DNA of 64,000 nt from Trichuris trichiura (Eukaryota; Nematoda; Enoplea; Trichinellida; Trichuridae), in the NCBI GenBank assembly GCA_037903355.1, contig JBAJFE010000011.1, forward strand, positions 753,001-817,000, in the 5' to 3' direction. The position numbers and the translations under genes were made by a program. This document shows positions 11,297-13,645 of this stretch, piece by piece (within the stretch, counting starts at the first letter, position 1; each line of letters begins with the position of its first letter). The notes under the pieces are model-generated. The model made no database searches, had not been told where the DNA came from, and saw only the letters and a list, made by a program, of their open reading frames with translations.

Positions 11297-13645
11297 ATGC
11301 GGTTAATCTGTTTTGTTGCTCTTTTATTCATAGCTGTAAGTATACCCATTTTATACGAAATTAGCTGTCAGGGTTAAGCGCTGCTGCACGTTCGATGCTC
11401 ATGAATTGAAACGCGCTCGCGGCGTGAAGACATTGTTGACGTAGAGTCCATCGTTGGAGGCAGTTTTACATTCACTTTTCAGAATGGCTTACATATACGT
11501 TAGGTGTAACATCAAATGAATTCTTTTCCGCCTGTGCTTTTTGCTTTGTTTTATAGTTTGTCCGACTGTAGGCTGCTTTCGTGCAACATTCTTGTTCCAT
11601 TTATCTCTTGGGAGTGTTGGTAAACAAGCGTTTAAGTAGCGTTTTACCTTATTATCTCCATCGATCCTTATTACCTGTTGTTCATGTTCGCATTATCTCG
11701 ATGCACAAACTTCTCAAACGTAACCTAATATGCAGCGTAGCTTTTCGTTTTATTTATAGTGTGATTCATAAACGAGAATCTCATTTTCTTAATATCTTTG
11801 AGCGTACAGTTGTTTTAAGGAAGCTGAAAGTACCCACGATGTCGAATGTGGGTGTAACGGAAACGATGACGTTGCCGTTGCAGAAGGGACCGCCTAAGGA
11901 GACAACCCAACGGCCCGTAACGAAAGTGATCAATCATTCCTGTGCGAGCCCTTCCGGCACCTTTGCTGTGAGTGACAGATGTCGTCACCTGTCATTCAGC
12001 CATTTATCACGAAGGGATCAAAGGGAACGCTAGGTGCCTCGTACAGGGAGATCTGAGTCAGTTTCGCTTTCGTTTCGCTCTCGTGCGGCAGTTCGTCTTT
12101 CTGCTCGCTACTTTCGTTCGTCTTCGTCTATTTTCTTGCTGAGTAAAATTTCGTTCTCTCCGGTGTGTTGTACGTATCAGCAATCGTCGAGGTTAAGTCA
12201 CGTTCTGGTCCTCTGTTCGTTACAGTGGGTTGTCAAAGCATAGTTTTATAAGGAATGGAGACAACAGAATCGTAGGTGGATGGGAAGCTCTGCCGCATTC
12301 GGTTCCGTGGCAGGTGCGTTTACATATGTATGATAATGATCGTCTCGATGGTTCTTGTGGGGGCAGTCTGGTTCGACTTATGCCGGGCAACTCAACAAGA
12401 TTCGTTTTGACTGCTGCGCACTGCGTCCGTCACAATAAAAGGTATTTTCCTTTTTTAAATTTTTATACCTACGTTTTCTGCTCTTCTAATTTCACAAGAA
12501 ATCTGTTCCTCGTCATAGCCATGCCCTTATCTTTTCTTCGTAGACGATTTTTCACCGGCTGAATACTACCTTGAGATCTCTTGTAACGTTTTTGTCCGGA
12601 ACTTGACTACGTGCGGCAGTATTTATACTGTTATGCCTTAGTGTCATGCTGACTGATGACTCTTACCGATGACCAAGGAAGGTGCGGTGCAAAAGGCCAC
12701 TGAACAGTGGACGCTATTATATGAGCACGCTAAAAACATAGTGAAACTGGCTTGAACGTTTAATTATGTCGACCCCATAAAATTTTTTATTTACAGAAAT
12801 AGTCCGCTGCTTTCAATAAACTCGTATTCATTTTTTTGTAGAAAAGAGTATAGATCTCCAAACGACATTGAAGCGGTTGTTGGAGCGCACAACTTTCAAT
12901 TCTTTGAATTCGACAGAGTGGTATCAGGTGTCGAAAAATTTACGCACGGTCAATACAGTCATAAGTCAAAAAGGCTGGATATTGCTTTAATTCTGCTGCG
13001 CAGAACGATAACATTTACGGACACCATCATGCCAGTCTGCTTACCCAAATCACGTGAACCTCTACCAGAAGGCGCCCCATGCTATATAAGCGGCTGGGGA
13101 AGCATTGTTAGCGGTATGAATACAAATGAACAATCACGATTTCCTGTCTTTTTCAAGCTTTAGCTTATTTTAGGCGACAGCCCTTCCTACACGTTGCAAG
13201 TGGTCGATGTAAATATTCTGAAAGATGAAGATTGCGACACAGATGAGGAGACAAGGGCAAAGAGCTTCTGCGCGGGTCACAAGGAAGGTGGAAAAGATGC
13301 TTGCCAAGTAAGTTTGATACAGTTGCTGAAAATATCAACGTTTATTGCTGTTACAGTCTTAGATAAAAGAATTCGTTTCCATTAATGTTTCTTCTTTAGG
13401 GTGACTCCGGCGGTCCTCTCGTGTGCATCGTCAACGATCGCTTCTTCCTTTACGGTATAACATCGTACGGTGAGGGCTGCGGTCAGCATGGGAAACCAGG
13501 GGTATACTCGGAAGTTGCCCAGTATATTCACTGGATAAAGCGGCAGGCTCCTCTGTTTGATACTAAATTTGATCTATTTACTGATAGTATATATCAGGGT
13601 CAGGACGCAGTAGAGCAAAAGTCTGTTTCAAGCGAAACGTTTTGA
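11297..13645 (+). CDS. Secreted trypsin-like serine protease (S1 family), gene 2
   Basis: Six exons at 11297-11335, 11820-11851, 12226-12441, 12842-13113, 13174-13307 and 13400-13645 give 312 residues. Exon 1 encodes a signal peptide (MRLICFVALLFIA). Activation site R38-IVGG; triad His89 (LTAAHC), Asp142 (RLDIALI) and Ser234 (GDSGGP); Asp228 gives trypsin-type specificity. Exons equivalent to gene 1 exons 2, 3 and 4 have identical total lengths (248, 272, 134 nt) and phases. The family exon 2 is split by a 374-nt intron that coincides with an inserted element; splicing at 11851/12226 restores frame and gives a CGG-LSKH junction versus CG-LLRK in gene 1. The C-terminal tail after the protease fold is about 8 residues longer. 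It should be a secreted digestive or host-interface trypsin; substrate unknown. If the 374-nt segment is not spliced the protein terminates early. Confidence 0.9.
11853..12224 (+). mobile_element. DNA-transposon-like insertion acting as an intron
   Basis: A 372-bp segment with short terminal inverted repeats TGTAACG...CGTTACA. It is flanked by direct copies of GTGGG (11848-11852 and 12225-12229), where gene 1 has a single GTGGG. The GT donor is made from the last base of the left target duplication and the first base of the element. The AG acceptor is made from the element's last base and the first base of the right duplication. It is richer in GC and TCG-type repeats than its surroundings and has no coding capacity. 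Confidence 0.75.

What the first reader, a model, noticed from the sequence alone, without database searches (positions are those of the whole stretch)
11820..12441. A transposon-like insertion that appears to have become an in-frame intron
Gene 1 has one uninterrupted exon 2. Gene 2 has a 372-bp segment in it with TGTAACG...CGTTACA ends and GTGGG duplicated on both sides. Removing 11852-12225 restores an in-frame protease with a net gain of one glycine relative to the target. Both splice sites straddle the junctions: GT is the last base of the target duplication plus the first base of the element, and AG is the element's last base plus the first base of the other duplication. Terminal repeats plus target duplication building the splice sites is the logic described for introner elements in algae. 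A recent animal example with an intronless paralog 7 kb away would be notable.
Basis: partly seen in the sequence, partly recalled or inferred. Interest (0 to 1): 0.88.

Follow-up and report, generated by a model that had tools for sequence, protein, structure and literature searches.

The report
Solo LTR inside a whipworm protease gene
A leftover end piece of a retrotransposon recently landed inside a protease gene of a human whipworm, in some copies of the gene only; its ends happen to form splice-like signals, so it might be removed like an intron, but nothing yet shows that it is.

Summary
It is no TIR transposon or introner but a solo LTR of a BEL/Pao retrotransposon: 22 other near-complete copies, 12 as pairs (Pao-type coding sequence inside the one examined), 10 solo. 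The host is Trichuris trichiura or a very close relative. The insertion is young and not fixed: a collinear locus copy on contig C57 (sampled stretches 91-99.8% identical, 96% over gene 2 downstream of the site) has the empty site and an intact gene, and a public T. trichiura protein lacks the extra residue. Splicing is unshown. The donor TGG|GTGTAA is weak, the acceptor good; retention gives a stop after 25 codons. In-frame removal is automatic for any 5-bp GnnnG duplication, which 4 of 10 independent solo LTRs have. None of the other solos was found in a recognised host exon (partial check). Most likely a recent disruptive or leaky allele; a nascent intron is possible (about 20%).

The parts
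11853..12224 (+). Solo LTR (372 bp) of a BEL/Pao retrotransposon, in sense orientation to the protease gene
   Evidence: 22 other near-complete copies, 12 of them in 6 pairs 5.83-7.33 kb apart; Pao-type domains inside one such pair; orientation from paired copies
11848..11852 (.). Left target-site duplication GTGGG
   Evidence: single copy in the C57 empty site
12225..12229 (.). Right target-site duplication GTGGG
11852..12225 (+). Candidate GT-AG intron (374 bp); not shown to be spliced
   Evidence: donor TGG|GTGTAA: score -3.2 and 3/9 U1 matches; acceptor CGTTACAG with 14/19 pyrimidines (donor matrix recalled and approximate)
11895..11897 (+). First in-frame stop (TAA) if the LTR is retained, after 25 codons of exon 2
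11820..11852 (+). Gene 2 exon 2, part upstream of the LTR (first copy of the duplication included)
   Evidence: alignment with C57 and gene 1
12225..12441 (+). Gene 2 exon 2, part downstream of the LTR (Trypsin N-terminus with IVGG)
   Evidence: Pfam Trypsin 1.2e-8; donor AAAAG|GTATTT
12842..13113 (+). Gene 2 exon 3
   Evidence: Pfam Trypsin 1.2e-13 on 12840-13130
13174..13307 (+). Gene 2 exon 4
13400..13645 (+). Gene 2 exon 5 with GDSGGP and stop
5702..5949 (+). Gene 1 exon 2, uninterrupted paralog (end approximate)
   Evidence: Pfam Trypsin 3e-8 on 5690-6007

Best explanation
A BEL/Pao LTR retrotransposon inserted into exon 2 of a trypsin-like gene of Trichuris trichiura (or a very close relative), duplicating GTGGG; recombination between its two LTRs then removed the interior and left a 372-bp solo LTR (shown by anatomy). 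The insertion is absent from a collinear copy of the locus and from a public T. trichiura protein, so it is recent and not fixed (shown for these copies; whether C57 is the other allele or a recent duplicate is unresolved). By default the LTR brings a stop after 25 codons and a frameshift, so this copy is most likely null or strongly reduced (inferred). Because the duplication is GnnnG, the junctions form GT...AG and leave exactly one extra codon if used; some transcripts may be rescued this way, but the weak donor makes efficient splicing unlikely (inferred).
For: 23 LTR copies including this one, 6 pairs and 11 solos; on six pieces inside one pair: Peptidase_A17 7.4e-51, DUF5641 2.2e-31, DUF1759 2.2e-11, Integrase_H2C2 3.8e-10, RVT_1 1.2e-6 (28.8 bits against a cut-off of 29.6), one piece without a family; exact 5-bp duplications at 8 of the 10 other solos, one with 4 of 5 bases, one with an altered LTR end; nearest copies 98.1% identical, LTR pairs 97.0-99.7% identical; empty site on C57 with one GTGGG; P0001 (Trichuris trichiura) reads VECGLPKHSF without the extra glycine, T. 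muris P0004 VKCGLPVHQF; in-frame stop on retention and weak donor; the candidate's A at +5 is in 0 of 10 native donors collected from this gene family.
Against: The acceptor is good and the excision frame-perfect. The downstream exons carry no stop; against C57 there are 13 synonymous and 10 non-synonymous codon differences over 295 codons, which neither shows nor excludes constraint on this copy. No expression data. C57 departs from C21 beyond C57:43250 and is only 91-93% identical from the insertion site upstream through gene 1, so 'other allele' is not proven.
Confidence: 0.72

Rival explanations
1. Nascent intron: the solo LTR is spliced out precisely at 11852/12225 in most transcripts, so the copy makes a protease one glycine longer just before its catalytic domain and the insertion is nearly neutral.
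For: GT-AG at the junctions, frame kept, acceptor ending CAG with 14 of 19 pyrimidines, the best CAG of the stretch; all downstream exons open; precedents of TE insertions spliced from worm and fly exons, seen here only as reference entries.
Against: Donor TGG|GTGTAA is weak (3/9 U1 matches; the gene's three native donors have 5, 6 and 8); better-scoring GT sites lie 4 bp upstream (11848) and within the LTR (12163, and 11968 GTGAGT). GnnnG duplications are common in this family (4 of 10 independent solos), so nothing marks this junction as selected for splicing.
Confidence: 0.2
2. LTR promoter: transcription starts in the sense-oriented LTR and gives a 5'-truncated protease transcript, or one with a new 5' exon.
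For: LTR is sense-oriented to the gene; LTRs normally carry promoters (general knowledge).
Against: No promoter analysis was run and no expression data are held.
Confidence: 0.1
3. Splicing elsewhere: other GT-AG pairs remove part of the LTR and keep the frame, for example 11848/12197 or 11854/12197, which would add 9 or 11 residues.
For: Frame-open by script; donor 11848 scores better than 11852.
Against: Acceptor 12197 is poor (TAAG, 9 of 19 pyrimidines).
Confidence: 0.05
4. Ancestral intron lost in the other copies.
For: None found.
Against: The insert is 98% identical to LTRs elsewhere and carries a perfect duplication; the C57 copy, gene 1 and gene 0 are uninterrupted here.
Confidence: 0.01

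Closest known systems
Solo LTRs of BEL/Pao retrotransposons
   Same: TG...CA ends with short inverted termini, 5-bp target duplication, paired relatives with Pao peptidase, RT and integrase domains
   Different: This one lies in a coding exon, where its junctions form GT and AG
Drosophila vermilion allele with retrotransposon 412 in an exon, spliced from the precursor RNA (Fridell, Pret and Searles 1990; title seen as a reference entry in PMC2586383, paper not read)
   Same: LTR retrotransposon inside an exon, possible removal by splicing
   Different: There the title reports splicing; here it is not shown, and only a solo LTR remains
C. elegans Tc1 insertions removed by splicing (Rushforth and Anderson 1996; title seen as a reference entry in PMC2586383, not read)
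   Same: TE in a nematode exon that may be spliced
   Different: DNA transposon; the title reports splicing
Introners (Gozashti et al. 2022, PMC9860276, passages read)
   Same: Element ends and target duplication supply splice sites; some cases add whole codons
   Different: Introners are families of many introns in genes, with DNA-transposon signatures in many of the families described in the passages; here one exon insertion of a solo LTR, which has no known way to multiply by itself
SMART small LTR retrotransposons of grasses (PMC3281118, passages read)
   Same: Short LTR elements in genes; 11 genes where an insertion may affect splicing
   Different: Mostly inside existing introns; plants

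Membership tests
BEL/Pao LTR retrotransposon (solo LTR) | Repeat present elsewhere as direct pairs flanking an internal region | tested here: met
   6 pairs among 23 LTRs; five spaced 5.83-5.85 kb, one 7.33 kb
BEL/Pao LTR retrotransposon (solo LTR) | Pao-type pol domains in the internal region | tested here: met
   Peptidase_A17, DUF1759, Integrase_H2C2, DUF5641 above cut-off, RVT_1 just below (one of six pairs examined, in six pieces, one piece without a family)
BEL/Pao LTR retrotransposon (solo LTR) | TG...CA ends and a short (4-6 bp, recalled) target duplication at a lone LTR | tested here: met
   TGTAACG...CGTTACA, GTGGG on both sides
Introner | Family of similar copies that form introns in several genes | tested here: not met
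   Of 11 solo LTRs only this one was found in a recognised host coding exon. Check partial: 500-bp flanks, open frames for 10 of 10, frames read for 4, Pfam on seven frames of those 4 (only another element's integrase in L028)
Introner | Spliced from transcripts | not testable with these tools
   No RNA data held
Introner | Splice sites supplied by element ends and target duplication | tested here: met
   GT and AG dinucleotides straddle the junctions; use unproven
Trypsin-like (S1) protease gene | Trypsin domain | tested here: met
   PF00089 on exon pieces

The most novel reading that the evidence does not exclude
A polymorphic, newborn intron in an animal made by a solo LTR: any LTR with TG...CA ends that inserts with a 5-bp GnnnG duplication creates a GT...AG segment whose removal is in frame whatever the LTR's length and adds one codon, so LTR-LTR recombination in exons could be a general, length-independent route to intron gain, caught here before fixation.
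Probability: 0.18. Interest if true: 0.65.

Novelty: new member of a known kind. Interest (0 to 1): 0.32.

Why it matters
If spliced, carriers and non-carriers within one species would allow the splicing efficiency and cost of a newborn intron to be measured, and the GnnnG arithmetic gives a simple genome-wide prediction. If not spliced, it is an ordinary recent loss-of-function insertion in a multi-copy protease family.

Tried and rejected
Rejected: TIR DNA transposon (paired copies flank retrotransposon coding sequence); introner family (partial check, see membership test; L018 and L032 frames were listed without letters, and not scanned; L015, L029 and L033 had only short crossing frames of 24, 30 and 52 codons); ancestral intron. 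In-frame excision as evidence of selection (automatic for 5-bp duplications). Enrichment of GnnnG: 4 of 10 independent solos against 1/16 gives P 0.002, but this matches the product of the margins (5 first G, 7 last G; expected 3.5), so it looks like target preference (rows dropped or adjusted: L028 as duplicate of L021; L031 counted by its left copy; L032 inferred, altered LTR end; among full-length copies L027/L017 as duplicate, L023/L024 with 4 bp, L020/L012 with none). Rfam on the window: nothing. The repeat finder on 11700-12500 reported no pair; tandem arrays lie elsewhere. Donor statistics: the pattern found 11 sites; the script printed 10, of which 8 had a downstream acceptor and were counted with two more native donors of gene 2; the two without acceptor were dropped. 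The donor matrix was recalled and approximate, for ranking only. Literature: searches listed no paper that by title or abstract start reports a solo LTR spliced as an intron in a nematode; the library lacks most subscription papers. Passages read: PMC9860276, PMC2586383, PMC13322080, PMC3281118, PMC11782384, PMC3446317; other papers seen as listings only.

Full report
What is there. The window is contig C21:753001-817000 of a 72.7-Mb genome in 62 contigs. The gene encodes a trypsin-like protease (PF00089 on exon pieces). The closest protein found is P0001, 'Serine protease [Trichuris trichiura]', 97% identical over the whole query (the C57 copy of the gene), followed by T. suis at 78%, so the host is the human whipworm or a very close relative. 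Exon 2 of gene 2 is interrupted at 11853-12224 by 372 bp with a perfect 7-bp terminal inverted repeat, between two copies of GTGGG.

What the insert is. A genome search with the region gave 28 matches: 23 near-complete copies of the 372-bp unit including this one (the others 89-98% identical), one distant fragment (73%) and four short matches to exon sequence. All 22 others were fetched with flanks and aligned. Twelve form six direct pairs, five 5.83-5.85 kb apart and one 7.33 kb apart. Six pieces of the interior of one pair gave DUF1759, Peptidase_A17 (Pao retrotransposon peptidase), Integrase_H2C2 and DUF5641 above cut-off and RVT_1 just below; one piece gave no family. An interior of this family can be one long open frame. 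The unit is therefore the LTR of a BEL/Pao retrotransposon, and the ten unpaired copies and the window copy are solo LTRs. Eight of the ten other solos have exact 5-bp duplications, one has 4 of 5 (L031), one has an altered left end (L032). LTR pairs are 97.0-99.7% identical and the window copy is 98.1% identical to its nearest relatives, so the family has been active recently.

Presence and absence. Contig C57 is collinear with C21: stretches sampled between C57:1 and C57:43250 match C21:797356-743754. Identity is 96-98% in most, 99.8% in one, and 91-93% from the insertion site upstream through gene 1 (C57:30299-38275). The gene 0/gene 1 unit is single on C57 and double on C21. At the counterpart of gene 2, C57 has one GTGGG and no insert, and its exons are open. 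Beyond C57:43250 the contigs differ: sampled C57 pieces at 43.2-44.0, 60.0-61.0, 100.0-101.2 and 150.0-151.0 kb had no other match except 51 bp at the break, while C21 left of 743754 is multi-copy repeat. So C57 may be the other haplotype with a structural difference, or a recent duplicate. P0001 reads VECGLPKHSF, without the extra glycine. Over 295 codons compared exon by exon, window-P0001, C57-P0001 and window-C57 share 284, 286 and 285 residues, as three alleles would. T. muris P0004 reads VKCGLPVHQF. The uninterrupted state is ancestral and the insertion is not fixed.

Is it an intron? If the LTR stays in the RNA, the frame meets TAA after 25 codons. Of 19 GT-AG pairs that keep the frame open, 11852/12225 adds one codon; 11848/12197 and 11854/12197 would also keep all gene residues, adding 9 or 11, with a poor acceptor; the rest lose residues. 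The acceptor at 12225 is good. The donor TGG|GTGTAA is weak: 3 of 9 U1 matches against 5, 6 and 8 for the gene's three native donors, with better-scoring GT sites 4 bp upstream and inside the LTR. Its A at +5 is absent from 10 native donors of the family, whose +5 is G in five, T in four and C in one. No RNA data are held, so splicing is neither shown nor excluded. That the excision is in frame carries no weight: a 5-bp duplication minus the two bases that complete GT and AG always leaves three. GnnnG duplications occur at 4 of 10 independent solo LTRs, as expected from the margins.

Introner? For the 10 other solo LTRs I measured open frames across the empty site in 500-bp flanks, read the frames of four and scanned seven frames of those four with Pfam. 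The only family found was the integrase core (rve 6.5e-10) beside L028, which shares its flanks with L021: a nested insertion in another retroelement. This is a partial check; L018 and L032 were not scanned. Introners as described by Gozashti et al. (PMC9860276, passages) are families of many introns. The way of making splice sites is alike; membership is not supported.

Verdict. A recent, unfixed solo-LTR insertion in a protease exon, most likely disruptive, with a real but modest chance of being a leaky or nascent intron. Precedents for TE insertions spliced from exons exist (entries seen in the reference list of PMC2586383, papers not read).

Noticed in passing
C57:43250 / C21:743754 (L011, L052): Collinearity of the two contigs ends abruptly; sampled C57 pieces beyond are single-copy, C21 beyond is multi-copy repeat.
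   Followed up: partly
C21:745001-761000 versus C57:34001-44000: The gene 0/gene 1 unit is duplicated in tandem (about 92%) on C21 and single on C57.
   Followed up: partly
L022, L024, L025: Three 3' LTRs on different contigs are 100% identical although they differ from their 5' partners by 0.3-3%, which suggests conversion or shared templates.
   Followed up: no
L023, L026, L027: Three 5' LTRs (two of them one duplicated insertion) have lost the same 3' end, apparently by recombination between two GGTCCTC repeats at the LTR/interior border.
   Followed up: no
L021 and L028: A solo LTR beside another retroelement's integrase; the two loci share flanks, so they were duplicated together.
   Followed up: partly
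G000:C6:728854-874645: 19 matches to the trypsin active-site pattern on one strand: a large protease array.
   Followed up: no
window 28353-33197 and 60658-62127: Long tandem arrays with 123-bp and 40-bp units.
   Followed up: no
window 2485-2964 and 3310-3789: Inverted repeat of 480 bp, 94% identical.
   Followed up: no
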